A stretch of 37,551 bases of DNA from Anaerolineae bacterium (lineage in GTDB: Bacteria > Chloroflexota > Anaerolineae > J102): NCBI GenBank assembly GCA_027002405.1, contig JALWZT010000305.1:1-37551 (forward strand), given 5' to 3'. The notes under the pieces are model-generated. The model did no database searches. It saw only the letters and a list, made by a program, of their open reading frames with translations, and had not been told where the DNA came from. A program made the position numbers and the translations under genes. Of the stretch, positions 1,929 to 36,659 are shown one piece after another (within the stretch, counting starts at the first letter, position 1; every line of letters starts with the position of its first letter).

Positions 1929-2594
1929 ATGAGTGATTTAGACAATTCCCTGAAAAACGCGCCTCGCTCCACTTCTTTTCGCGGGCCTGCTTCCCTTTAC
2001 GTGGTGGGGCGATCCCTGCGTGGCTGGTACGAAGATTGGTTTCAACAGTTTCTTTTCAACTTTTTGACCACGTTGGGCTGGGCGACGATCCTTTTGGGTC
2101 CGCCCATGCTTTTTGCCATGTACGAAGCCGCTCATGAGCGGGTTCGAGGCCGAGGCATTGAACTGTATGATTTCTTCCGGGCCGCGCGGCACCATGCCCG
2201 GGCCAGTTGGACGTGGGCGCTTGTTAACCTCCTGGTGGGGGTGGTCATTGGTGTCAATGTGCTCTTCTATTGGCAATGGGCGCGACCGTGGTCCATCTTT
2301 CTGGCCACGCTTTTTTTCTTTGCAGGGCTTTTCTGGGCCATGATTCAGATGTATGTCATCCCTTATTACATGGCCCAAAAGACCCCTTCCTTAAAACTGG
2401 CCCATAAAAACGCGGCCCTCACTTTTTTGGCCGCGCCCGGCTATACGGGGCTTTTGTTCTTCCTGACTCTCCTTCTTTACCTCCTAAGCCTCTTCTTTAT
2501 CCTCCCCTGGATTCTGGCTTTCCCTGCCTGGGCGGTCTTGTTGGGAGCCCAGGCCGTGCAGGACCGCTTGCAGGCGTACGGTGTAGAAATGTGA
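1929..2594 (+). CDS. Small multi-pass membrane protein, DUF624/YesL-like
   Basis: About 221 residues with four or five hydrophobic segments. The first, after an amphipathic N-terminus, ends in LGPPMLFAMYEAAHERVRG, a layout like the DUF624 (YesL) family of small membrane proteins often found near carbohydrate genes. Two later segments contain VGVVIGVNVLFYW and a long run of Leu/Phe before the C-terminus. The start is uncertain: the ATG at 1929 lies ten bases after the pgi stop without a good ribosome-binding site, and a TTG at 1920 is an alternative. Close spacing suggests it is read together with pgi, perhaps by translational reinitiation. The molecular function is unknown and the family assignment is by overall look only. 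Confidence 0.75.
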   Translation: MSDLDNSLKNAPRSTSFRGPASLYVVGRSLRGWYEDWFQQFLFNFLTTLGWATILLGPPMLFAMYEAAHERVRGRGIELYDFFRAARHHARASWTWALVNLLVGVVIGVNVLFYWQWARPWSIFLATLFFFAGLFWAMIQMYVIPYYMAQKTPSLKLAHKNAALTFLAAPGYTGLLFFLTLLLYLLSLFFILPWILAFPAWAVLLGAQAVQDRLQAYGVEM

Positions 2595-3052
2595 GTATGA
2601 TTTGCAAAAATTGCAAGAACACAGAGTTTCGCAGTCGCTACGGGCGATGGCTCACCCCAGAAAATGGGAACACTGATGACACTGATACTTTGTAACGCTG
2701 ATTTGCGCAGATGATTTCTTATAATGACGAAACCTCCTATCAAAACGACTTTCTCCCACAGGGCCATGGGACCTGGTCGGAATGCCCACCATCGCGGGGA
2801 GCCATAGTTGGCCCAACATCGCAGGTTTTTGCCCGGTTCGGCGTAGTGGGGGCAATGGGTGCACAGCACGCGGATTTCGATCGCCTCGAAAAAAGCCAGG
2901 ATGAAGGCGATCCAGGGGATGAGCCACTAGGCATTTTTGCAGTGGAGCCGATTTTCATCAAATTTTCCAACGATTTTCCAGCATCGGCTCGTCCGTCTTT
3001 GTATAATAAAGAACAAAGATGTACGACAACGGTCCTCCTATAAGGTGATATC
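2595..3052. other. Intergenic region: repeat fragments, gene remnant, leader of the next gene
   Basis: No intact gene is visible. 2640-2715 holds short-period text of the mosaic family (AACGCTGATTTGCGCAGATG and a GGGAACACTGATGACACTG stretch). 2716-2926 is a minus-strand gene remnant, listed separately. A TATAAT hexamer at 3002-3007 and the purine-rich AAGGTGA at 3042-3048 could serve the downstream gene at 3053, but no convincing -35 box lies at the right distance. Confidence 0.6.
2716..2926 (-). pseudogene. Truncated remnant of a membrane protein with CTHCPHY motif
   Basis: Read on the minus strand from 2926, an open stretch of about 70 codons encodes a hydrophobic segment (LIPWIAFILAFF), then EIRVLCTHCPHYAEPGK, a Cys-Trp-Ala-Asn-Tyr-Gly stretch, RPGPMALWEKVVLIGGF, and then nonsense derived from the mosaic repeat. 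An in-frame TAG stands immediately upstream at 2927-2929. The CxxCPxY and RPGPM pieces look like a conserved membrane-associated family of unknown function, but I cannot name it. The sudden change into repeat text at about 2715 suggests repeat insertion or recombination removed the 3' part. Confidence 0.55.
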
Positions 3053-4021
3053 ATGCCAGCCGATGTCATTCAGGTTCAATACGACACCTTACAAGAAATC
3101 GCGTCGATCTGGGGACGCGCACAAGACCGCCATATCCAAACCAAACAGGCGTTGGTGCAGTGTGTGGACCAGCTACGTAATGGGGGGTGGGAAGGGCTCG
3201 GCGCAGCCGCTTTTTTTGCAGAAATGGATGAGGATGTGTTTCCCGCGCTGGAACGACTGGTTCAGGCCCTGGGCGAAGCGCAACGAGTGACGACCCAGAT
3301 CATCACCATCTTCCGTGAGGCGGAAGAGGAAGCAGCCCGCCCCTTCCGAGAATTAGCCATAAACTGGACTCGACCCAGGACTAGCGCGCCGGGCGTGTCC
3401 ACACCCACCCAAAGGCCGGGATGGTGGGATCGTCTGTTGGAAGTGGGGGAGAAGATTGCCGATTGGGTAGACAAAGTCGATACCTGGCTACCGGCCGTGG
3501 CGTTGCCCTTTGTGTTGGTTGGTTTGAAGGAAGGCATCCGTTATCCTGGCCAGATCATCGTGGATTTACCCGACTGGCTGGGACCAGCGCGGCGTTGGTT
3601 GCGGGGTATGGTGAATATGTCGGAGCATCTGACCCACATCAAGGGGTCGAACATGGCCCGGCATATTGCTGGTCAGGTGGATATCGGGCCGTTGGATTTG
3701 GCGCTTTTCGGAATCGAAGGAGCGCTCGATACCTATTATTCCTGGCAGCGTCACGCGGAGGAATATGCCTCCTACCACGATCCCACCCGTGAACTCTCGG
3801 CCCGAATTGTGGATGGCATGATCGCCTTTATGCCGGCGACGGGTGAACTTTTTGGAGGCTTTCTCGGTTGGAAGGGGGGGCGATGGCTGGTGGCTTTGTT
3901 GGAGGATTCATCGCCGGCCCGCCTGGCGCAGCTGTGGGCGCGATCATCGGCGGCGTCGCCGGTGGTATTTTTGGAGGGTGGCTTGGCCATGAGGGCGGCA
4001 AAGACCTGGGCGATTTCGTAG
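3053..4021 (+). CDS. WXG100-like (ESAT-6 superfamily) protein, zero-frame product
   Basis: The first 100 residues are predicted to form two helices joined by a Gly-Gly-Trp-Glu-Gly turn (W46, G48), the hallmark of WXG100 proteins exported by type VII-like systems. The following GAAAFFAEMDEDVFPALERLV is typical of the second helix. A linker (TSAPGVSTPTQRPGWW) and a middle domain follow, including WLPAVALPFVLVGLKEGIRYPG. After residue 276 the zero frame gives an unconvincing 46-residue tail, whereas the -1 frame gives a glycine-zipper domain (next entry), so the functional protein probably continues to 4155 (about 367 residues). The start ATG at 3053 has AAGGTGA at 3042-3048. Two membrane/PH-like genes follow at once. 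Targeting or toxin function is inference; no secretion genes are in the window. Confidence 0.75.
   Translation: MPADVIQVQYDTLQEIASIWGRAQDRHIQTKQALVQCVDQLRNGGWEGLGAAAFFAEMDEDVFPALERLVQALGEAQRVTTQIITIFREAEEEAARPFRELAINWTRPRTSAPGVSTPTQRPGWWDRLLEVGEKIADWVDKVDTWLPAVALPFVLVGLKEGIRYPGQIIVDLPDWLGPARRWLRGMVNMSEHLTHIKGSNMARHIAGQVDIGPLDLALFGIEGALDTYYSWQRHAEEYASYHDPTRELSARIVDGMIAFMPATGELFGGFLGWKGGRWLVALLEDSSPARLAQLWARSSAASPVVFLEGGLAMRAAKTWAIS
3874..3880 (+). promoter_or_regulatory. G_GGG_GGG heptamer: possible -1 frameshift site (or indel)
   Basis: Seven G residues are phased so that the zero frame reads AAG GGG GGG CGA. A slip of one base backwards reads AAG GGG GGG GCG ATG GCT and joins the WXG100-like frame to the glycine-zipper frame. 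This fits the X_XXY_YYZ arrangement of bacterial -1 slippery sites. An eighth G in the true genome, or a recent one-base deletion, would have the same effect, so programmed frameshifting is not proven. Confidence 0.45.
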
Positions 4022-4674: not shown

Positions 4675-5164
4675 TATGTCTCCCCTGGTTCTTCATACCA
4701 ATCCCGAAGCCATTTTGAAAACATTAGCCATAGCGTGCTTTGCTTGGTTGGCGGGGATTACGCTGGCCCTTGCGCCTCTTTGGGAGCCTCGACTACCTGC
4801 GTATTTACGGGCTTCGCCCATCGTCATTGGTCCGAAATCCAGTGTGCTGGCAGGGATTCTCGGTTTGTTCGTGGCCATTCTTGCCACCTTTCTTCTGTGG
4901 CAGATGGTGCGTTATCCAGAAATTATTGTGGACGAGGTTGGCATCCATCGTCCTCCCTCGATGGTCATCCCTTGGGAGCAGATTGAGTCTGTCGCTTGCC
5001 TTCCTGAGGAAGAGAAAGTCGTGATCACGCTCACGGCGGATAACACCCTGGTGGGAAAGACCGAGGTGCTCACCAACCCACATATCATCTCCCCCCTCCT
5101 TTCGCCCGAAGATTTCCGCAAGTTGTGCCAACGCCTAGAGCAAGGCATGCTGTTCCGAAAATAG
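4667..5164 (+). CDS. Two-helix membrane protein with PH-like domain (paralog 2)
   Basis: 165 residues if started at ATG 4667, which overlaps the previous gene by eight bases; ATG 4676 is an alternative. GGAAGA at 4655-4660 can serve as the ribosome-binding site. Two membrane helices (KTLAIACFAWLAGITLAL and VLAGILGLFVAILATFLLW) precede a strand-rich domain with EIIVDEVGIHRPPS, MVIPWEQIESVAC and SPEDFRKLCQRLEQ. It is a diverged tandem copy of the preceding gene. The last four codons (Phe-Arg-Lys-stop) are exactly TTCCGAAAATAG, the conserved first 12 bases of the mosaic repeat that begins here, so the repeat supplies the C-terminus and stop codon. Confidence 0.75.
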   Translation: MVDMSPLVLHTNPEAILKTLAIACFAWLAGITLALAPLWEPRLPAYLRASPIVIGPKSSVLAGILGLFVAILATFLLWQMVRYPEIIVDEVGIHRPPSMVIPWEQIESVACLPEEEKVVITLTADNTLVGKTEVLTNPHIISPLLSPEDFRKLCQRLEQGMLFRK

Positions 5165-5505
5165 GATCAGGATTAGGATTGAGGATTGTTAGGCCGAGGT
5201 TAGGCGCGAGCAGGAGTAATCAGTGATCAGTCATCAGTAATCAGTAGCGCCTTGCGACGTCATTCCGAGGGAGCGAAGCGACCGAGGAATCTAGCGAAGC
5301 GCAAAAACCACGGCACGGCGCTCGCTTCGCTCGCTAGATGCTTCGCTCCCTCCGGTCGCTCAGCATGACGAACATCTGCGGCGATCTGCGTTGCGAAGCA
5401 TCGGCGCAAATCTGCGTTCCCTTCACCTGCCACTTGCTACTTGCAAACTTGCCACCTGCGTTCTATTTTCGTCGTTATGCGGTGAGCTTTCGCTCATGGT
5501 GACTG
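5153..5505 (+). repeat. Mosaic repeat unit (family 1)
   Basis: Begins TTCCGAAAATAGGATCAGG, then has GGATTAGGATT and AATCAGTGATCAGTCATCAG short-period modules, the long palindromic module at 5259-5371 (TCATTCCGAGGGAGCG ... CAGCATGACGA), ATCTGCG repeats and a TTGCCACCTGC module. It closes with TCGTTATGCGGTGAGC and CTCATGGTGACTG. It overlaps the last 12 bases of the upstream gene and abuts the next unit head-to-tail. Confidence 0.85.
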
Positions 5506-5701
5506 TTCCGTAAATAGCGTTGTGTTCGTTTGCAAAAGCAACTCGAAGCCCACGTTGGGCGAGGCAGCAATGGGCGTGATGCGTGAAACGTGAAACGTGA
5601 GAACCTTACGCATCACGCATCACGCATCACGTTTCACGGTCTGCCAGCCTGGCTGCGAGGCGTTTTCACCCGTATCGGTGGACAGTCGTCCGTGGTGACT
5701 G
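5506..5701 (+). repeat. Mosaic repeat unit (family 1), GTGAAACGTG variant
   Basis: 196 bp starting TTCCGTAAATAGCG and ending GTGGTGACTG. The interior contains GTTCGTTTGCAAAAGCAAC, GCCCACGTTGGGCGAGG, and a central palindromic array of GTGAAACGTGA and TCACGCATCACG words. It is nearly the same as 14692-14880 and matches, inverted, 28237-28439. It carries no open reading frame of interest. Confidence 0.85.
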
Positions 5702-5946
5702 TTCCGAAAATAGAGCCTCGCGACGTCATTCCGAGGGAGCGAAGCGACCGAGGCATGTCCTGAGCGCAGTCGAAGGAAATCTAGCGAAGCGCAAAAACCA
5801 CGGCATGGCGCTCGCTTCGCTCGCTAGATGCTTCGCTCCCTTCGGTCGCTCAGCATGACGAATATCTGCGTCAATCTGCGTCGCATCTGCGTCAATCTGT
5901 GTTCTATTTTCATCGTTATGTGGTGAGCTACTGCTCATGGTGACTG
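5702..5946 (+). repeat. Mosaic repeat unit (family 1), long-palindrome variant
   Basis: Starts TTCCGAAAATAGAGCC and ends CTCATGGTGACTG. It holds the long palindromic module at 5725-5861 with an extra insertion (GGCATGTCCTGAGCGCAGTC) between its arms, followed by ATCTGCGTCAATCTGCG repeats. It is the third of three head-to-tail units. A 12-base start motif of a further, truncated unit follows at 5947-5958 and runs as AACGCAGATGAACGC text to the end of the cupin gene at 6006. Confidence 0.85.
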
Positions 5947-6005
5947 TTCCGTAAATAGAGAACGCAGATGAACGCTAATAGAAACAGATTCACGCAGATA
6001 AATCT

Positions 6006-13581: not shown

Positions 13582-13652
13582 TTGGTTGCCTCCGCAGACG
13601 AAAACGTGAAAAGAGGAGGGAACGTCAAGGAAAGCGGATTGGCCTGCCCCTG

Positions 13653-13855
13653 CTTTGTAAATAGGATTCGGATCAGGATTAGGATTGAGATCATCAGGAC
13701 AACGTTGAGCGAGGCGACAACGGGCGTCAAACGTAAAACGTGAAACGTCAGGTCATGACGCATGACGTTTGACGCTTGACGAAATCGGCTTCCCGCGCCA
13801 ACTTGGCCGCGAGATGTTTTCTTCGGTATCGGCGAACTGCCGTTCGTGGTGACTG
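13653..13855 (+). repeat. Mosaic repeat unit (family 1)
   Basis: Begins CTTTGTAAATAGGATTCGG and ends TCGTGGTGACTG. Inside are GGATCAGGATTAGGATTGAG, ACGTTGAGCGAGG, and a palindromic array of AAACGTGAAACGTCA and ATGACGTTTGACG words, then CCGCGCCAACTTGGCCGCG. It lies between the CPBP gene and the next unit, which it joins head-to-tail. Confidence 0.85.
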
Positions 13856-14121
13856 CTTTGAAAATAGAGTAATCAGTGATCAGTTATCAGTAATCAGTGT
13901 TCAGTAGCGCCTTGCAACGTCATTCCGAGGGAGCGAAGCGACCGAGGAATCTAGCGAAGCGCAAAAAACCGCCGCATGGCGCTCGCTTCGCTCGCTAGAT
14001 GCTTCGCTCCCTCCGGTCGCTCAGCATGACGAATATCTGCGAAAATCTGCGTTGCGAAGCATCGGCGCAAATCAGCGTTCCCTTTTCCTCGGTATCGGCG
14101 AGCCGTGGCTCATGGTGACTG
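13856..14121 (+). repeat. Mosaic repeat unit (family 1), long-palindrome variant
   Basis: Begins CTTTGAAAATAGAG, then AATCAGTGATCAG words, the long palindromic module at 13920-14031 and ATCTGCG/AATCAGCG words, ending CTCATGGTGACTG. The remaining 94 bases to the mscL stop (14122-14215) contain no gene or clear terminator that I can see. Confidence 0.85.
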
Positions 14122-14215
14122 CTATCGGCGTATCAACGTGTACAACGCTTGCTCCCGGCGAGGGCTGAGCGTCTACATCTGGTCAGACATCATTCCGAGA
14201 CCTCGGTTTGCAATG

Positions 14216-14677
14216 TCAGGCGTCGGCTTCCGCCAGTTCCGTGGTGCAATAGGGGCAACGCACCGCGGGGATGGGAATTTCCATATGACAATAGGGACAT
14301 TCCTTGGTGGTAGGCTCGGCTGGTGCCGGTTCGGGCTCCTTTTGCAATTTGTTATAATAGCGCACCAGCAAAAAGACGACAAACGCCACGATGACGAAGC
14401 TGATCACGGCGTTGATGAAGGCTCCCCAGGCGATGACCACGGCCCCGGCATCTTGGGCCTGGGCCAGGGAGGCGTAGGGGCCCGGCGGATCGCCTGGCTT
14501 TAGCACCGTCATGATATTGCTGAAATCTACACCGCCTAATAGCAGACCAATGGGGGGCATGATCACATTGTTCACCAATGATTTCACCACCGCGCCAAAG
14601 GCCGCGCCGATGATAATGCCCACGGCCATGTCCATGACGTTGCCGCGCTTGAGGAAGTCTTTAAATTCTTGCCACAT
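14216..14677 (-). CDS. mscL: Large-conductance mechanosensitive channel with zinc-ribbon tail
   Basis: 153 residues. Homopentameric osmotic safety valve of the inner membrane. N-terminal helix and TM1 ([20 protein letters not shown], then [21 protein letters not shown]), periplasmic loop, and TM2 (about 84-106, [19 protein letters not shown]). In place of the usual short helical bundle it ends in a Pro-rich linker and a CPYC-x10-CPYC zinc ribbon (C127, C130, C141, C144). The ribosome-binding site AGGAGGTAAC is excellent. A mosaic unit begins one base past that site, at 14692, so the mscL promoter must lie in or beyond repeat DNA. Confidence 0.95.
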
Positions 14678-14691
14678 GATGTTACCTCCTG

Positions 14692-14880
14692 TTCCGTAAA
14701 TAGCGTTGTGTTCGTTTGCAAAAGCAACTCGAAGCCCACGTTGGGCGAGGCAGCAATGGGCGTGATGCGTGAAACGTGAAACGTGAGAACCTTACGCATC
14801 ACGCATCACGTTTCACGGCCCGCCAGCCTGACTGCGAGGCGTTTTCGTCCGTATCGGCGTGCCGCCGCGCGTGGCGCCTG
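14692..14880 (+). repeat. Mosaic repeat unit (family 1), GTGAAACGTG variant
   Basis: 189 bp, almost identical to 5506-5701: TTCCGTAAATAGCG, GCCCACGTTGGGCGAGG, GTGAAACGTGAAACGTGAG, then GCGTTTTCGTCCGTATCGGC and the end GTGGCGCCTG. A new start motif CTTTGTAAACAGG follows at 14881-14893 but the unit breaks off. Confidence 0.85.
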
Positions 14881-14984
14881 CTTTGTAAACAGGATTGGGA
14901 TTCTGACAATACCGACAGCACAATGTCAGATGAATGGGAATTGGATGACAGGAAGGGGTGGGATTATTTTGGTACACTATGGCC

Positions 14985-15558: not shown

Positions 15559-16590
15559 ATGAGTGCATTCCCTGAGCTCTCTCAACTTCAGACCCAGGCC
15601 CAGGCCGAGCTGGCCGAGGTGAAAGATGACCGCCAGCTTGAAGCCTGGCGCATCAAGTGGTTGGGCCGTAAGGGACTGGTCCCCGCGGCTATTAAGAAAA
15701 TCGGAAGCCTGCCCAAAGAGGAACGGGCCGCTTATGGCCAGGCGGTTAATCAGCTTAAGCAAGCTGTTCAGGCCGCTTACGAAGCCCGAAAGCAAGCCCT
15801 CCGGGAAGAAGCCATGGCCGCGGAGCTGCGGGCAGAAGGGTTCGACCCTACCCTGCCCGGGCGTAGACCCCAGGTGGGCAAGCTCCATCCTGTCACGGCC
15901 ACCATGCGGGAAATTATCCGCATCTTCGCGCACATGGGCTTCCAGGTCTACACGGCCCGAGATGTGGAAACCGATGAATACAACTTTCAACTCCTGAACT
16001 TTCCCAAAGGACATCCCGCCCGGGAGATGCAGGACACCTTCCACACCACCATCCCCGATGTGCTCTTGCGGACCCACACCAGCCCGGGCCAAATCCGCGT
16101 CATGCGCGAACGTTATCCCGAGCCTATTCGGGTGGTTTTGCCTGGGAAGTGCTATCGCTACGAACAGGTCACAGCCCGATCCGAGATGATGTTTCACCAG
16201 ATCGAAGGGTTGGCCGTGGGCAAACATATCACCTTTGCAGACTTAAAAGGTACCTTACAGGCTTTTGTGGAACAGCTCTTTGGCGAAGGCCGTCGGCTCC
16301 GCTTCCGGGCTTCCCACTTCCCCTTCACCGAGCCCAGCGCAGAGGTAGATGTGGATTGCATCCTCTGTGGGGGCAAAGGCTGTCGCGTGTGCAAATACAC
16401 CGGCTGGCTGGAGATTTTGGGGTGTGGCATGGTCCATCCCAATGTATTGCGCAACGGCGGTTACGACCCCGACGAATGGACCGGATATGCCTTTGGAATG
16501 GGCCCGGAACGTATCGCCATGTTGCTGTATGGCGTGGATGATATCCGTTACTTCTACAGCAATGACGTTCGGTTCCTGGCGCAATTTTGA
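15559..16590 (+). CDS. pheS: Phenylalanine-tRNA ligase alpha subunit
   Basis: 343 residues, the usual bacterial length. N-terminal coiled-coil tRNA-binding arm (about 1-90), then the class II catalytic core: motif 1 around HPVTATMREIIRIFAHMGF, motif 2 CYRYEQVTARSEMMFHQIEG and motif 3 GMGPERIAMLLYGVDDIR. PheS forms an alpha2-beta2 enzyme with PheT. A CGGKGCRVCKYTGW insertion carries several cysteines, also common in thermophile and Chloroflexota homologs, and may bind zinc. ATG 15559 is chosen because AGGAAGGAA lies at 15547-15555; an earlier in-frame ATG sits within the T-box terminator. Expression is governed by the T-box. Confidence 0.97.
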   Translation: MSAFPELSQLQTQAQAELAEVKDDRQLEAWRIKWLGRKGLVPAAIKKIGSLPKEERAAYGQAVNQLKQAVQAAYEARKQALREEAMAAELRAEGFDPTLPGRRPQVGKLHPVTATMREIIRIFAHMGFQVYTARDVETDEYNFQLLNFPKGHPAREMQDTFHTTIPDVLLRTHTSPGQIRVMRERYPEPIRVVLPGKCYRYEQVTARSEMMFHQIEGLAVGKHITFADLKGTLQAFVEQLFGEGRRLRFRASHFPFTEPSAEVDVDCILCGGKGCRVCKYTGWLEILGCGMVHPNVLRNGGYDPDEWTGYAFGMGPERIAMLLYGVDDIRYFYSNDVRFLAQF

Positions 16591-16803
16591 CGTAACGACT
16601 AAGGTCGTTGCCACGAAGACACGAAGAAGCGTGAAGGTACGAAGTAATTTTCTCTATTTTTCTTCGTGGCTTCTTGGGGCCTAAAGTCGAGTACGTTAGC
16701 AGCTGCATTTTGACATTCAAAAATCACCTCCGCAAAGCGCCCAGCCATGCTCTCTGCTTCTTTTTTCCTCGGCGACTTTGCGTGAGACAAAAGCGAGGCA
16801 ACT
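16591..16803. other. pheS-pheT spacer with degenerate repeat
   Basis: 213 bases without a gene. 16607-16670 contains CCACGAAGACACGAAGAAG ... TTTTTCTTCGTGGC, the same inverted text as the interior of the MITE copies at 23307 and 36437. Their GTAACTAT ends are not clearly preserved. The spacer is unusually long for a pheST operon and contains TTTCTCTATTTTTC after a stem, so it may lower read-through to pheT. Only a weak GCGAGGC precedes the pheT start. Confidence 0.55.
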
Positions 16804-22174: not shown

Positions 22175-22210
22175 GCTGACCTTTCGGTACGTTTGTTGTG
22201 GGGGTTACTG

Positions 22211-22401
22211 TTCCGTAAATAGAGCCTCGCGACGTCATTCCGAGGGAGCGAAGCGACCGAGGAATCTAGCGAAGCGCAAAAAACACGGCATGGCGCTCGC
22301 TTCGCTCGCTAGATGCTTCGCTCCCTTCGGTCGCTCAGCATGACGAACATCTGCGTCCCCATTTTCGTCGTTATGCGGTGAGCTATTGCTCATGGTGACT
22401 G
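22211..22401 (+). repeat. Mosaic repeat unit (family 1), long-palindrome variant
   Basis: Starts TTCCGTAAATAGAGCC and ends CTCATGGTGACTG. The long palindromic module occupies 22234-22345, followed by CATTTTCGTCGTTATGCGG. It lies immediately upstream of the ATPase-like gene (minus strand), so that gene's promoter would be inside or across the repeat. Confidence 0.85.
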
Positions 22402-22800
22402 TTCCGTAAACAGGATCAGGATTAGGATTGAGGATTGTCAGGCCGAAGTTAGGCGCGAGCAGGAGTAATCAGTGATCAGTGATCAGTCATCAGTCATCAG
22501 TCATCAGTGTTCAGTAGCACTCCCGTGGCCAGCCCGCAGGGCTTCGTATCCGTAGCTCGGAGGTTTAGCTCCGAGCAGCAGAAGAAACAACGCCGCGAGG
22601 CTAGCCGGAATTATCCGGCGCCGTTTTATAGCCCGGCGACTTCATCGCCGGGCGGGCGTGGTGGACGCCACTTCGCTCGGCTAAACCACGCCAAATGTCT
22701 GAGACGCACACCGTGACCACTTGCCACGTGCCACCTGCAAACCTGCAGACTGCGTCCCCATTTTCATCGTTATGTGGTGCGCTATCGCTCATGGTGACCG
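22402..22800 (+). repeat. Mosaic repeat unit (family 1) with three-hairpin module
   Basis: 400 bp, starting TTCCGTAAACAGGATCAGG, then GATCAGTGATCAGTCATCAG words, then three clear stem-loops: GCTCGGAGGTTTAGCTCCGAGC (near 22556), GCCGGAATTATCCGGC (near 22605) and GCCCGGCGACTTCATCGCCGGGC (near 22628). It closes with TTATGTGGTGCGC and CTCATGGTGACCG. The same hairpin module recurs in the unit at 31218. The right end supplies the stop codon of the GNAT gene. Confidence 0.85.
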
Positions 22801-23292
22801 TGAAGTCGAAACGTTTCGTTCAAACAATCTCACCCACCAATCTTCTTCCTGGACTCGTCCCATGTCTGTAAAGCCTCGCTGGCGGTAATAGGTTTTCAGG
22901 AACGTGTTGCCATCCCAGCAATCCAGTCGCAGCCGGGTCCGGCCCCGTTGCCGCGTGGCTTCTACGGCGCCATCCAGGATCTGGGTGCCCAGGTCCTGGC
23001 CCGCGGTCCAGCGGGCAACGACTAGCCCGCTCAGGTAGCAGGCGGGGGGACGTGGATCGGGCCAATAGGGGGGTGCGAGGGAGGTCAGCAGGCAGCCCCC
23101 GGCCAGCCGGCCATGCTTTTCCGCCAGGATAAGACAGCCGGCCTGGAGTTGAGCCAGCAATTTAGCCCGGGCCGCGCGATGCTCACCGGGCCGCCATTGA
23201 TAGATACCTCTGGCCCACAGCCAGTCGGCGGCCTCTTCCAGCAGGTCGATGTAAGCATCGAGCCTGGTCGCATCAACCTCGTAGATCCGCAT
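22789..23292 (-). CDS. GNAT family N-acetyltransferase
   Basis: 167 residues with the GNAT fold: beta strands CLILAEKHGRLAGGCLLTSL and ACYLSGLVVARWTAGQDLGT, where the (R/Q)-x-x-G-x-(G/A) acetyl-CoA loop appears as WTAGQDLGTQIL, then LRLDCWDGNTFLKTYYRQRGF, which is the usual C-terminal strand and YxxxGF ending. The substrate is unknown. The stop codon (22789-22791) and the last three residues are encoded by the mosaic-repeat terminus CGGTCACCATGA. A MITE is inserted seven to fifteen bases upstream of the start, so no normal ribosome-binding site remains. Confidence 0.85.
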   Translation of the reverse strand: MRIYEVDATRLDAYIDLLEEAADWLWARGIYQWRPGEHRAARAKLLAQLQAGCLILAEKHGRLAGGCLLTSLAPPYWPDPRPPACYLSGLVVARWTAGQDLGTQILDGAVEATRQRGRTRLRLDCWDGNTFLKTYYRQRGFTDMGRVQEEDWWVRLFERNVSTSRSP

Positions 23293-23306
23293 TGATAAAG
23301 ACTATC

Positions 23307-23502
23307 GTAACTATACAGCTCCTTCTGCAACACGTTTTTACCACGAAGGCACAAAGGCCCCCCTCCGGCTCCCCCCGCACGCAGGGGGAGAGGCAAAGAC
23401 ACGAAGAATTTTTTATTTTTCCCTTTGTGTCTTCGTGTCCTTCGTGTCCTTCGTGTCCTTAGTGGTTTTTGCCTTGCTATGAGAGGGTACGTGTATAGTT
23501 AC
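23307..23502. mobile_element. MITE (family 2), copy 1, with terminal inverted repeats and TSD
   Basis: Left end GTAACTATACA (23307-23317) and right end GTATAGTTAC (23493-23502) are inverted repeats. Directly outside both ends stands AGACTATC (23299-23306 and 23503-23510), a perfect 8-bp target-site duplication. The interior is a large imperfect palindrome of CCACGAAGGCACAAAGG-type and TTTGTGTCTTCGTG words, with an extra GC-rich hairpin (GGCTCCCCCCGCACGCAGGG). It encodes nothing and would need a transposase supplied elsewhere. Confidence 0.85.
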
Positions 23503-23527
23503 AGACTATCACACTTTGCAAAAGTCG

Positions 23528-23635
23528 TCCAAAGGATTGGATACTGGATATTGGATATTTTCCTGTTCCGGGGCGGTTCGAATCCCCAATATCAAATACC
23601 CAATATCAAATACCCAATATCAAAGATGGACCACG
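23528..23635. repeat. Inverted and tandem repeat GGATACTGGATATTGG / CCAATATCAAATACC
   Basis: Left half has GGATTGGATACTGGATATTGG, and the right half has three copies of the word ACCCAATATCAAAT. The two halves pair with each other around a GGGGCGGTTCGAATCCCC hairpin. It is a third repeat type in the window. The end of the TPR gene lies in it, and the TGA stop of that gene is the reverse complement of the TCA in AATATCAAAG. Confidence 0.7.
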
Positions 23636-26330: not shown

Positions 26331-26513
26331 AGGTCTATCTCCTGGCGGGGTACGTAGGAATCTCCTCATAACTTATCCTATTCCAGGCGGTTTGTCAATC
26401 CGGTTCGCAGGGTTTTGCAAATCGGGAGGAAAATCGCCTTGCCCTCTCCCCTGGTCTCTGTTACAATCCCAAGGCGGACTGATCGGACTGATCACTGGTT
26501 ACTATTTTCAAGG

Positions 26514-26860
26514 CAGTCCAACGGCTGGTTCACCTGCGCCGATACCGAGGAAAATGGGAACGCAGATTTGCGCCGATGCTTCGCAACGCAGATTGACGCA
26601 GATGTTCGTCATGCTGAGCGACCGAAGGGAGCGAAGCATCTAGCGAGCGAAGCAAGTGCCATGCGGTGGTTTTTTGCGCTTCGCTAGATTCCCTTCGACT
26701 GCGCTCAGGACATGCCTCGGTCGCTTCGCTCCCTCGGAATGACGTCGCAAGGCTCTACTGAACACTGAACACTGAATACTGAACACTCCCATTGTCGCCT
26801 CGCTCAACGTTGTCCTGACGATCCTCAATCCTAATCCTGATCCGAATCCTATTTACAAAG
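26514..26860 (-). repeat. Mosaic repeat unit (family 1), long-palindrome variant, reverse orientation
   Basis: Read on the minus strand it starts CTTTGTAAATAGGATTCGG (from 26860) and ends near 26514. It contains the ATTGAGGATCGTC and AGTGTTCAGTATTCAGTG words and the long palindromic module at 26607-26744 with the inserted GACATGTCC-type arm. A second start motif (CTATTTTCAAGG, 26502-26513) belongs to a truncated neighbour. It lies just upstream of the glycosyltransferase ribosome-binding site. Confidence 0.85.
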
Positions 26861-26885
26861 CCGCCCTGTCCCCAGGAGGTTTCCC

Positions 26886-28175
26886 ATGCCCGATCCCGCC
26901 GCCATCCCCCTGATCCACCAGATCGCGTCTGAAGCTCCCGCGCAACTCGATCTCACCATTGAATCCCATCTGCAACAGGCCACCCGGGCCGCGGACCAGC
27001 TCCGGGCCGAATTCCCTGCGGTGGCTGAGCTGACCGCGCTGGAAAAGGCGCTGGCTGCCGAAAAGGATCGCTGGCCCCTCCTCCTCCATCTCGCGGTCAA
27101 ACTGGCCAAATCAAAACAGATCCTCTCCGGCATTCGCGAGCCCGTCCATATCTCCGTGGTTTTCGCAGTGTACAAGGAACACATCCGCATCCTCACCAAG
27201 GAGGAACATCCCCTGGGCGAAAATTTCCTCTTGCGCAAGATCGGCCAGCTCAACTGGCTCATGGCTGAGTTTCCCAACTTCCAATGGGATATGCTCATCG
27301 TGGATGATGGGTGTCCCGAAGGGAGCGGGCGCATTGCCCAGCAGATTCTGGCCGAGAAATACGACGGCCACAACGTGCGCGTGCTTTTTCTGCAAGAGGC
27401 TATTGGCCAGGGTCTGCCCGTAACCCGGCCCATGACCAGCACCAATGACAGCCGCAAGGGTGGGAGCATTGCGTACGGCATGTGGGTGGCCGCGCAGCAG
27501 GACCTTCCCAACCACATTGTCCTCTTCACCGACGCAGACCTTTCCACCCACCTGGGGCAGACGGGCCTGCTGGTAGGTCCCATCATGGTGGATGGCGCGG
27601 ACGCGGCCATCGGCTCCCGCCGCGAGCCCGAATCCATCGTGGTCAAGACGGGCACCCGCAATCTGCGGGGCAAGCTCTTCATCTACTTATGGAAGCGGGT
27701 GATCACGAACCTGGATGAGATCGTGGACACCCAGGCCGGGTTCAAGGCCTTTCGGGCCGAGGTGGTGCGGGAGATCGTGGAAGACATGCTGGAGAAGCAG
27801 TTCGCGTTCGATATCGAGCTGCTGGTGAAGACCCAGCTTCGCCGGCCGGGCAGCATCGCGAAAGTGCCCATCGCCTGGATCGACAGCGACGCGCTCTCCA
27901 CCACCACGGATCTGCAACCCTATCTGGGCATGCTCAAGAGCATGGTGGCCATGTACCGCCGCTACCTGCCGCCCAATCCCCAGTCGGAAGCGTTCGCCGC
28001 TTTCATTGAATCTCTGGATGAAGACCAGTGGCAGACCCTGGTGGCCCATGTGCCCGAACCCATTGCCGCCCGCGAGCCCTACACCTTTAGCGAGTTCGAT
28101 GAGGTGACGGTGGATGACTTGCGGGCGATTTTGAAATCAGAGAACGCTGATGCCACTGATGCTTCGCAACGCTGA
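26886..28175 (+). CDS. Family 2 glycosyltransferase
   Basis: 429 residues. The GT-A core starts near residue 90 (VHISVVFAVYKEH), with the nucleotide-binding MLIVDDGCPEGSG, the metal-binding DxD in HIVLFTDADLSTH (about 216-218), and the acceptor region EIVDTQAGFKAFRAEVV. An N-terminal helical segment of about 85 residues precedes it. No membrane helix is visible, so it is soluble. The sugar donor and acceptor are not evident. AGGAGG at 26874-26879 fixes the start. The last ten residues (ENADATDASQR) and the stop codon read from mosaic-repeat text (AACGCTGATGCCACTGATGC), so the native C-terminus was probably replaced. Confidence 0.88.
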   Translation: MPDPAAIPLIHQIASEAPAQLDLTIESHLQQATRAADQLRAEFPAVAELTALEKALAAEKDRWPLLLHLAVKLAKSKQILSGIREPVHISVVFAVYKEHIRILTKEEHPLGENFLLRKIGQLNWLMAEFPNFQWDMLIVDDGCPEGSGRIAQQILAEKYDGHNVRVLFLQEAIGQGLPVTRPMTSTNDSRKGGSIAYGMWVAAQQDLPNHIVLFTDADLSTHLGQTGLLVGPIMVDGADAAIGSRREPESIVVKTGTRNLRGKLFIYLWKRVITNLDEIVDTQAGFKAFRAEVVREIVEDMLEKQFAFDIELLVKTQLRRPGSIAKVPIAWIDSDALSTTTDLQPYLGMLKSMVAMYRRYLPPNPQSEAFAAFIESLDEDQWQTLVAHVPEPIAAREPYTFSEFDEVTVDDLRAILKSENADATDASQR

Positions 28176-28236
28176 TTTGCGCAGATGGTAGTTTTAGATT
28201 TTTATTTTGATTTATCTGCGTCCTCTATTTTCAAGG
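28139..28236 (-). repeat. Mosaic repeat fragment (family 1), reverse orientation
   Basis: Contains AACGCTGATGCCACTGATGC, TTCGCAACGCTGATTTGCGC and the end CTATTTTCAAGG at 28225-28236, which is the start motif of a unit in reverse. The left part encodes the tail of the glycosyltransferase. Confidence 0.7.
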
Positions 28237-28439
28237 CAGTCCAACGGCTGGCTCGCCCGCGCCGATACCGAAGAAAACATCTCGCGGCCAAGTTGGCGCG
28301 GGAAGCCAAGCACGTAATGCGTAATGCGTGATGCGTAACGATCTCACGTTTCACGTTTTCACGCATCACGTCCGCTGCTGCCTCGCCCAACGTGGGCTTC
28401 GGGTTGCTTTCGCAGACGAACGCAACGCTATTTTCAAAG
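28237..28439 (-). repeat. Mosaic repeat unit (family 1), reverse orientation
   Basis: 203 bp. Reverse complement reads CTTTGAAAATAGCG, GTTCGTCTGCGAAAGCAAC, GCCCACGTTGGGCGAGG, then the GTGAAAACGTGAAACGTGAG array, GCCGCGAGATGTTTTCTTCGG and TATCGGCG. It closely resembles 5506-5701 and 14692-14880. Confidence 0.85.
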
Positions 28440-28633
28440 CAGTCCGACGGCGGGCCACCCCGCGCCGATACCGACGAAAATGCCTCGCGGCCAGGGCGGC
28501 GTGACTCGTATTCCGTATTGCGTATTGCGTAACGACTGGACGGAATACGGAATACGCAATACGAACCTTTGCCGACTCGCCCAACGTCGGCCTGGCGATT
28601 CCTCAGCAACCAGCGATCATTCTATTTTCATAG
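28440..28633 (-). repeat. Mosaic repeat unit (family 1), left half of inverted pair around ABC operon
   Basis: 194 bp. Its reverse complement starts CTATGAAAATAGAATGATCG and runs identical to 30929-30986 for 58 bases (through GACGTTGGGCGAG). Inside is a different central palindrome, ATTCCGTATTGCGTATTGCG paired with GGAATACGGAATACGCAATA. It stops four bases before the permease stop codon. Confidence 0.85.
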
Positions 28634-28637
28634 CAGC

Positions 28638-30917: not shown

Positions 30918-30928
30918 GGGATTTTCTG

Positions 30929-31129
30929 CTATGAAAATAGAATGATCGCTGGTTGCTGAGGAATCGCCAGGCCGACGTTGGGCGAGGCGGCAACGGGCGT
31001 GATGCGTGAAAGCGTGAAACGTGAGGTCATTACGCATCACGCATTACGCATCACGTACTTGGCTTCCCGCGCCAACCTGGCCGCGAGACGTTTTCTTCGG
31101 TATCGGCGAACTGCCGTTCGTGGCGCCTG
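30929..31129 (+). repeat. Mosaic repeat unit (family 1), right half of inverted pair around ABC operon
   Basis: 201 bp, starting CTATGAAAATAGAATGATCG and ending CGTTCGTGGCGCCTG. It shares its first 58 bases exactly with the reverse complement of 28576-28633. The interior has the GTGAAAGCGTGAAACGTGAGG / ATTACGCATCACG palindromic array, and its end matches the unit at 13653. Confidence 0.85.
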
Positions 31130-31217
31130 TATGGTTCCATGCCCATTTTTGCACTTGAAAAGTCACATGAGATAGTGCCATTGGTCACTACCCGAGTCAT
31201 GAAAAGGGACCGGGGTG

Positions 31218-31540
31218 TTCCGTAAATAGGATCAGGATTAGGATTGAGGATTGGCAGGCCGAGGCCAGGCGCGAGCAGGAGTAATCAGTGATCAGTCATC
31301 AGTAATCAGTGTTCAGTAGCACTCCCGTGGCCAGCCCGCAGGCCTTCGCGTTCGTAGCTTGGAGGTTCAGATCCGAGCAGAAGAAACAGCGCGCCTGCGG
31401 GGCTAGCGCCGTCCCCTAGCCGGATTCATCCGGCGCCGTTTTATAGCCCGGCGACTTCATCGCCGGGCGGGCTCACCTGCCACTTGCGCCCCATTTTTCG
31501 TCGTCGGTGAACCATCGCTCGCCCCTCCCTCTAAAGGCAG
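31218..31540 (+). repeat. Mosaic repeat unit (family 1) with three-hairpin module
   Basis: Begins TTCCGTAAATAGGATCAGG, followed by the AATCAGTGATCAGTCATCAG words and the hairpin module also found at 22402-22800: CTTGGAGGTTCAGATCCGAG, CTAGCGCCGTCCCCTAG, GCCGGATTCATCCGGC and GCCCGGCGACTTCATCGCCGGGC. The right end (TCGTCGTCGGTGAACCATCG) is degenerate. The 88 bases between this unit and the previous one (31130-31217) hold nothing I recognise. Confidence 0.8.
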
Positions 31541-36427: not shown

Positions 36428-36436
36428 AACTTTTTG

Positions 36437-36590
36437 GTAACTATAATACAGGTATCCCATACAACGCTTTGCCACGAAGGCTCGAAGCTTTTCGAAGACA
36501 CGAAGAAAACCTTCTATTTTTTCCTTCGTGCCTTGGTGCTTTCGTGTCTTCGTGGTTTTTGTCTTGCTGTGAGAGTACCTGGATAGTTAC
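36437..36590. mobile_element. MITE (family 2), copy 2, with terminal inverted repeats and TSD
   Basis: Left end GTAACTATAATACAGG (36437-) and right end CCTGGATAGTTAC (-36590) form inverted repeats. The interior is CCACGAAGGCTCGAAGC ... TTTCGTGTCTTCGTGG, as in copy 1. It is flanked by AACTTTTTG (36428-36436) and AACTTTTG (36591-36598), a target-site duplication differing by one T in a T run. It is non-coding. Confidence 0.8.
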
Positions 36591-36659
36591 AACTTTTGTG
36601 CCTTTTGTGGTTTGTTAACCGGGGTACGTTGGCAGTTATCTCCTCCGCTCCTGTTGCGC

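What the first reader, a model, noticed from the sequence alone, without database searches (positions are those of the whole stretch)
23299..23510. MITE with intact terminal inverted repeats and perfect 8-bp target duplication
GTAACTATAC/GTATAGTTAC ends are flanked on both sides by AGACTATC. A second copy at 36437-36590 has the same ends and interior and is flanked by AACTTTTTG/AACTTTTG. This is direct evidence of transposition of a non-coding element, and a degenerate interior remains between pheS and pheT. Copy 1 landed within about 15 bases of the GNAT start and has displaced its ribosome-binding region.
Basis: seen in the sequence. Interest (0 to 1): 0.55.

Follow-up and report, generated by a model that had tools for sequence, protein, structure and literature searches.

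The report
IS66-driven miniature mobile element family
A short non-coding DNA element in an uncultured Anaerolineae bacterium is a genuine jumping element that most likely hitch-hikes on a known kind of transposase (IS66 type), and its catalogued copies carry a hairpin core that also occurs inside a second, differently ended family.

Summary
Window 23307-23502 is a 196-bp non-coding element with GTAACTATACA inverted ends and an exact 8-bp duplication AGACTATC. In this genome and two congeners I catalogued 71 TIR-bounded elements; 41 have an exact 8-bp duplication, 49 at least 7 of 8, against 0.58 exact expected by shuffling. The likely mobiliser was found: an IS66-family insertion sequence, apparently single-ORF (ISBst12-like), with the same 14-bp ends. 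In the window's genome its middle is missing from the assembly, but five left and five right ends are present and four pairs share an 8-bp duplication. A complete, more distant relative in a Geobacteraceae MAG has GTAACTAT(T/A)CAG ends, one large tnpC ORF and an exact 8-bp duplication. Two side claims need correction: the pheS-pheT 'remnant' (16592-16706) is a separate MITE of a sister family (GTAACTACTAAGG/GTAACTGCTAACG ends) with its own exact duplication ATTTTGAC, and copy 1 displaced no recognisable ribosome-binding site. All 71 elements carry CACGAAG or CTTCGTG in a strongly folding interior; the same core occurs in the sister family and, mostly without such ends, in 11 other genomes of 400 sampled in the phylum. 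A new member of a known kind.

The parts
23299..23306 (.). target-site duplication AGACTATC, left copy
   Evidence: exact match to 23503-23510
23307..23502 (.). MITE copy 1 (family 1, 196 bp), left end GTAACTATACAGCT, right end ACGTGTATAGTTAC, CACGAAG/CTTCGTG hairpin core with a nested GC-rich palindrome; no coding capacity recognised
   Evidence: (fold z -6.7)
23503..23510 (.). target-site duplication AGACTATC, right copy
36428..36436 (.). left flank of copy 2, AACTTTTTG (imperfect duplication)
36437..36590 (.). MITE copy 2 (family 1, 154 bp), one mismatch in each 10-bp end
   Evidence: fold z -6.4
36591..36598 (.). right flank of copy 2, AACTTTTG (duplication differing from the left by one T)
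36594..36639 (.). remnant of the right half of a family-2 MITE (...GGTTTGTTAACCGGGGTACGTTGGCAGTTAT) abutting copy 2
   Evidence: about 44 nt of it recur at 87-95% identity in the capped list, in 7 of the 9 genus genomes; full family-2 copies seen
16584..16591 (.). target-site duplication ATTTTGAC (contains the TGA stop of pheS)
16592..16706 (.). family-2 MITE between pheS and pheT (115 bp; GTAACGACTAAGGT...TACGTTAGCAGCTGC), same type of CACGAAG core
   Evidence: (fold z -1.9, 9 of 200 shuffles as stable)
16707..16714 (.). target-site duplication ATTTTGAC, right copy
22789..23292 (-). GNAT acetyltransferase gene (167 aa) whose ATG lies 14 bp from copy 1
   Evidence: Pfam PF00583, 40.7 bits

Best explanation
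The element is a non-autonomous miniature inverted-repeat transposable element (MITE) moved in trans by the TnpC transposase of a co-resident IS66-family, apparently single-ORF (ISBst12-like) insertion sequence. Proposed steps. (1) The transposase recognises the 14-bp end GTAACTATACASST at both ends; shared ends are shown, recognition is inferred. (2) It inserts the element with an 8-bp staggered cut, leaving 8-bp duplications; shown as footprints for MITE and IS. (3) Insertions accumulate mostly between genes, with fixed ends and a drifting interior; partly shown. (4) The interior, an imperfect CACGAAG...CTTCGTG palindrome that would fold into a strong hairpin in RNA or single-stranded DNA, is present in every copy catalogued. 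It probably helps the element survive (for example as a transcript hairpin or a fold-back DNA form), but no function was shown.
For: 8-bp duplications: exact in 41 of 71 TIR-bounded elements (24 of 48 own genome, 8 of 10 G011, 9 of 13 G013), at least 7 of 8 in 49 of 71; none has an exact 7-, 9- or 10-bp one (one has an exact 6-bp one); shuffled pairing of flanks gives mean 0.58, maximum 4 in 1000. Ends: positions 1-9 were part of the selection, but positions 10, 11 and 14, which were not, are also 0.96-0.97 constant over 142 ends; positions 15-40 range 0.36-0.77. IS partner: five contigs end inside a left IS end and five inside a right IS end. The left end encodes MNLLQENRRLKQENAELRERLQ; the right end encodes an IS66 TnpC C-terminus (40 aa; NF033517 positions 357-385, E 4e-4, 19.5 bits, a fragment far below the family cut-off of 180) whose TAG stop lies inside the inverted repeat. 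Four left/right pairs share an 8-mer (CCAGCAGG, GACTGATT, CACTGATC, TAGTCTTT), plus two pairs in G011 (TTGCGAAA, AAAGGATT). G011 TnpC: PF03050 155.8 bits, NF033517 283.9 bits. Complete IS in Geobacteraceae CAIMXI010000171.1: 1701 bp, one large ORF (480 aa), GTAACTATTCAG/GTAACTATACAG ends, GAATTTTT on both sides; 38% identical to G011 TnpC. Insertion against an empty paralogous site: in L177 a 459-bp family-1 element (CTTTATTT duplicated) sits inside a family-2 element; with the flanks joined, a 154-bp family-2 element with a single CTTTATTT remains, as in L255 and L248. Distribution: 14-mer ends in 7 of 9 genus genomes, 0 of 11 others of the family. Position: a mechanical ORF of 110 aa or more spans 9 of the 71 elements.
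Against: No IS66 DDE domain (PF03050) was found in the window's own assembly, so the transposase there is inferred from the two IS ends; the middle is presumably lost to collapsed repeats. Three of the four own-genome IS pairs have flanks in repetitive sequence (ACTGAT- and TAGTCTTT-type runs), so their 8-mer matches are weaker evidence than CCAGCAGG; C107 and C141 stay unpaired. MITE and IS resemble each other only at the ends: the longest local match of either own-genome IS end to any of the 71 elements is 23-27 bp, and of the partial G011 IS 34 bp at 76%, so descent by internal deletion is not shown. 22 of 71 elements have duplications below 7 of 8, some being probable mispairings or decayed copies. 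G013 has many copies but neither IS end was detected there at DNA level. A precise orthologous empty site was not obtained: five relatives examined lack the element at the L040 site and G010 at the L017 site, but the junctions align poorly. No movement was observed directly.
Confidence: 0.93

Rival explanations
1. The element is an internal-deletion derivative (type I MITE) of this IS66 element and merely carries leftover IS sequence.
For: Identical 14-bp ends and identical duplication length; similarity reaches 23-27 bp at some ends.
Against: No further similarity between the sampled IS sequence and the 71 elements. The CACGAAG core is absent from the own-genome left and right IS ends tested and from the Geobacteraceae IS copies L105 and L106, with one isolated 7-mer in the partial G011 IS. 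The middle of the own IS is unseen.
Confidence: 0.12
2. It is primarily a functional RNA or regulatory hairpin repeat (REP- or ERIC-like) spread mainly by recombination; the duplications are incidental.
For: Very stable fold: z below -3 in all 64 of the 71 elements that were tested (up to 260 bp), median -7.2; window controls median -0.3, 10 of 60 below -2. All three window insertions are intergenic between co-directional genes.
Against: Exact 8-bp duplications in 41 of 71 and an IS with the same ends and duplication length. No Rfam match up to E 1 in 23200-23600. Fold strength follows from the palindrome and does not show an RNA function.
Confidence: 0.05
3. The ends belong to another 8-bp-duplicating transposase (for example IS1595-, ISL3- or IS6-type) and the match to IS66 ends is coincidence.
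For: Several IS families make 8-bp duplications (recalled; an IS6 element with 8 is in PMC3281130, passage); the own-genome transposase domain is not assembled.
Against: Identical 14-bp ends on an element whose own coding ends are IS66 TnpC, in two species, and similar ends on a complete IS66 element in another phylum.
Confidence: 0.02

Closest known systems
ISDge4, ISBst12 group of the IS66 family (Deinococcus geothermalis; PMC12898284, passages seen)
   Same: Ends GTGACTACTCAGCA / GTAACTGCTCAGCA, one 449-aa transposase ORF, 8-bp duplication CCTCGATG; active transposition reported.
   Different: An autonomous IS, other organism, other end variant; no MITE is described in the passages seen.
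MITEAba12 with ISAba12 (Acinetobacter; PMC6382973, passages seen)
   Same: 113-bp non-coding element whose identity with its IS is confined to the inverted repeats; same duplication length as the IS.
   Different: 9-bp duplications, 16-bp GGCTTTGTTG-type ends, another IS family; movement seen in the laboratory.
MITEPsy1/MITEPsy2 (Pseudomonas syringae; PMC3189936, passages seen)
   Same: Bacterial MITEs paired with IS or transposon ends; mobilisation of MITEPsy1 shown.
   Different: 4-bp duplication (MITEPsy1, listed as 'IS5?') or ends like a Tn3-family element (MITEPsy2); not IS66.
REP and other small palindromic repeats (PMC3733652, passages seen)
   Same: Palindromes in many copies, MITEs often next to coding sequences.
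   Different: The element here has IS66-type ends and 8-bp duplications; only its interior resembles that class.

Membership tests
Bacterial MITE | short, non-coding, terminal inverted repeats, multiple copies | tested here: met
   137-459 bp, 71 elements in three genomes, conserved ends; coding potential judged from ORF lists and Pfam only in the window
Bacterial MITE | target-site duplications of constant length | tested here: met
   8 bp: 41 of 71 exact, 49 of 71 at least 7 of 8
Bacterial MITE | ends and duplication length shared with a co-resident autonomous element | tested here: met
   IS66 ends in the same genome, 4 pairs of ends sharing an 8-mer out of 5 left and 5 right; its interior is not assembled there
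Bacterial MITE | mobilised in trans by that element | not testable with these tools
   needs a transposition assay
IS66 family / ISBst12 group (the partner IS) | TnpC transposase of the IS66 type | tested here: met
   G011 NF033517 283.9 bits (cut-off 180), PF03050 155.8 bits; L105 274.9 bits; own genome only the C-terminal 40 aa, 19.5 bits, E 4e-4
IS66 family / ISBst12 group (the partner IS) | ends beginning GTAA and 8-bp duplication | tested here: met
   compared with ISDge4 in PMC12898284 and two Paracoccus IS66 elements with 8-bp repeats in PMC3281130
IS66 family / ISBst12 group (the partner IS) | single ORF, no tnpA/tnpB | tested here: inconclusive
   in the complete Geobacteraceae copy (2220-3920) the only long ORF is 2474-3916; other ORFs of 100 aa or more inside it overlap it. 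No tnpA/tnpB profile search was run; the own-genome and G011 copies are incomplete
Type I MITE (internal deletion of its IS) | homology to the IS beyond the inverted repeats | tested here: inconclusive
   longest match 23-27 bp for the own IS ends, 34 bp at 76% for the partial G011 IS; no core in the own-genome IS ends; the middle of the own IS is unseen

The most novel reading that the evidence does not exclude
One interior module, a CACGAAG...CTTCGTG palindrome, has repeatedly become cargo of different IS66 end families in Anaerolineae: GTAACTATACA, GTAACTACTAA/GTAACTGCTAA, and a GTAAC-type frame in another family of the class. The hairpin would then be a selected part of these MITEs, and ends and cores would be exchanged between transposase partners.
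Probability: 0.35. Interest if true: 0.6.

Novelty: new member of a known kind. Interest (0 to 1): 0.42.

Why it matters
It gives a concrete MITE/transposase pair for the IS66 (ISBst12-like) group. Two library searches for papers naming IS66 together with MITE(s) (8 and 13 papers) listed none that, from titles, abstract starts and the passages I opened in three of them, describes an IS66-dependent MITE; the rest were not opened. It also explains a share of the intergenic repeats of this genus, separates two MITE families by their ends, and makes a testable case that a hairpin core travels between end families.

Tried and rejected
Plasmid collection for copy 1: no match. IS66 DDE domain in the own genome: none, explained by assembly breaks inside the IS. 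Precise orthologous empty sites: joined flanks of 7 copies were searched in the genus; only absence at orthologous places could be shown for two of them, so I used the nested paralogous site in L177. Copy 1 empty site: upstream regions of the GNAT gene in G013, G014 and G015 do not align with it. Rfam on 23200-23600: no match. Literature search for the core letters: one irrelevant paper. Chloroflexi/MITE searches: 2 papers (passages of one opened) and the top 10 of 260 (listing only); nothing seen describing this element. Considered and rejected: a degenerate family-1 copy between pheS and pheT (it has other ends and its own duplication). The G013 IS66 gene (C180) has a GTAACTACTAAGGTAG end upstream and is the likely family-2 partner, but its other end was not found.

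Full report
Observation. The window holds a 196-bp sequence at 23307-23502 with 10-bp perfect inverted ends and AGACTATC on both sides. Copy 2 at 36437-36590 has one mismatch in each 10-mer and flanks that differ by one T. Four matches to the end sequence (up to one mismatch) were found against 0.36 expected in shuffles. A de novo scan of the window for exact 8-bp duplications around inverted ends returned copy 1, a second element at 16592-16706 and one chance-like pair.

Copy number and duplications. The window is contig C305 of a 4.32-Mb, 363-contig genome. GTAACTATA occurs 60+60 times against 18+11 for the reversed control, and GTAACTATACASST 54+48 times against 0+0. From loci L001-L099 and L146-L183 I catalogued TIR-bounded elements: both 9-bp ends starting GTAA, at most two mismatches in total, 90-480 bp. 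Loci L100-L145 and elements too near a contig end were left out. The result is 71 elements (48 own genome, 10 G011, 13 G013), of which 41 have an exact 8-bp duplication and 49 at least 7 of 8. Shuffled flank pairing gives 0.58 on average, at most 4. The 22 others include decayed copies and a few probable mispairings (for example those of 278, 308 and 385 bp); I kept them in the denominator. The G011 and G013 elements were located by the end pattern, mostly as facing pairs, not by interior similarity and before their flanks were seen.

The transposase. Seven fetched contigs stop about 125 bp inside an element that starts with the same 14 bp but then differs from the MITE; further searches brought the total to five contigs with left and five with right ends. 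Left ends encode MNLLQENRRLKQENAELRERLQ. Right ends encode an IS66 TnpC C-terminus (NF033517, E 4e-4, 19.5 bits for 40 aa) whose stop codon lies in the inverted repeat. Matching the flanking 8-mers pairs four of five left with four of five right ends (CCAGCAGG, GACTGATT, CACTGATC, TAGTCTTT), and two pairs in congener G011. Three of the four own-genome pairs lie in repetitive flanks, so they weigh less than CCAGCAGG. The two unpaired ends are C107 and C141. C107 carries a second copy of the first 71 bp of the IS, possibly a nested insertion. The DDE domain itself is not in the own assembly. G011 corresponds to MAG WGCR01 (Anaerolineae bacterium S145_12; identical TnpC), which is why I call the genus Anaerolineae. 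It has a contig carrying an end and a 465-aa TnpC open to the contig edge. Among 10 related loci in genome contigs, L105 (Geobacteraceae) is a complete 1701-bp IS with GTAACTATTCAG/GTAACTATACAG ends, one large ORF (480 aa) and GAATTTTT on both sides. The published ISDge4 of the ISBst12 group has closely similar ends and an 8-bp duplication (PMC12898284, passages). Between IS and MITE only the ends are alike: the longest local match of an own-genome IS end to any of the 71 elements is 23-27 bp.

Distribution and empty sites. The 14-mer occurs in 7 of 9 genomes of the genus and 0 of 11 others of the family. At the orthologue of one insertion (L040) five relatives examined lack the element; at another (L017) G010, the one relative aligned across the junction, lacks it; alignments at the junctions are poor. 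A clean test came from nesting: in G013 (L177) a family-1 element lies inside a family-2 element. Removing it and one CTTTATTT in a script leaves a 154-bp family-2 element that aligns with uninterrupted ones (L255, L248).

Sister family. The sequence between pheS and pheT (16592-16706) starts GTAACGACTAAGGT, ends TACGTTAGCAGCTGC and is flanked by ATTTTGAC on both sides; the left duplication contains the TGA of pheS. Similar elements (GTAACTACTAAGG / GTAACTGCTAACG ends) with exact 8-bp duplications were found at eight other places in the held sequence; a scan of the shuffled sequence gave 1 hit of any kind against 55 elements. A G013 IS66 gene has a GTAACTACTAAGGTAG end upstream, so this family probably has its own IS66 partner. 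Copy 2 abuts a remnant of this family (36594-36639).

Interior. All 71 catalogued elements contain CACGAAG or CTTCGTG; the 23 of G011 and G013 were not selected by interior. The fold of copy 1 has z -6.7 and of copy 2 z -6.4; the pheS-pheT element is weak at z -1.9, 9 of 200 shuffles folding as well. All 64 elements up to 260 bp have z below -3, median -7.2; controls from the window have median -0.3, with 10 of 60 below -2. The 16-mer CCACGAAGRCACGAAG occurs in 12 of 400 genomes sampled in the phylum (the own one included), with no reversed-control hit in the rows shown. Of 26 loci read from 11 other genomes, 10 have a simple inverted ...GTGG arm within 134 nt; their position relative to genes was not tested. 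One (L240, G244) sits in a GTAAC-type frame with an exact 8-bp duplication, ATCGGTTA. Of the 10 own-genome sites listed, two lie in family-1 and three in family-2 sequence, four follow a GAAAATAG repeat of another kind, and one is in neither (by eye). A GC-rich palindrome is nested in the core of 17 of 71 elements. So the core is wider than this MITE. Whether it is selected cargo or a passive passenger is open.

Effect on genes. Copy 1 ends 14 bp before the ATG of a GNAT gene (PF00583). The joined flanks show no Shine-Dalgarno-like motif near that ATG by eye; the MITE end itself brings AAGGAG, 26 nt away. The claim of a displaced ribosome-binding site is therefore not supported. The three window insertions lie between co-directional genes: TPR protein and GNAT, pheS and pheT, subtilase-like protein and GHMP kinase. 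Over the 71 elements a mechanical ORF of at least 110 aa spans 9.

Verdict. An ordinary kind of element with an unusually complete case: MITE, matching IS66 ends, matching duplications, nested empty site. The modular core is the part worth pursuing.

Noticed in passing
window 5151-5954, 13646-14901, 22203-22808, 26502-26861, 28142-28636, 30926-31472: Large clusters of other repeats (ATCAGTGATCAGT runs, GAAAATAG/CTATTTTC-bounded units, CATTCCGAGGGAGCG units) recurring in both orientations; elsewhere in the genome the CACGAAG core follows GAAAATAG units.
   Followed up: partly
L092 (G000:C107), contig start: The first 71 bp of the IS66 left end are followed directly by another left end, possibly an IS inserted into an IS with TTTACTGC as target.
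   Followed up: no
L177 381-839 and L179 392-850 (G013): 459-bp family-1 elements, much longer than typical; the one in L177 is nested inside a family-2 MITE. The content of the extra length was not examined.
   Followed up: partly
family-1 elements, end positions 12-13: These two positions are GC, CG, GG or CC (S S) in most ends and usually differ between the two ends of one MITE (AGCT...ACGT, AGGT...AGGT), whereas the IS has AGGT at both ends as read inward.
   Followed up: no
L240/L259 (G244, same class, other family): A CACGAAG core inside a frame GTAACAGTTTAC...CTGAATAGATAC with duplication ATCGGTTA, suggesting a related MITE family outside the genus.
   Followed up: partly
L251, L252, L248, window 23358-23393: A GC-rich palindrome (CCGGCTCCCCC...GGGGGAGAGG type) is nested in the core at a similar place in family 1, family 2 and a third repeat frame, looking like a separate small mobile palindrome.
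   Followed up: no
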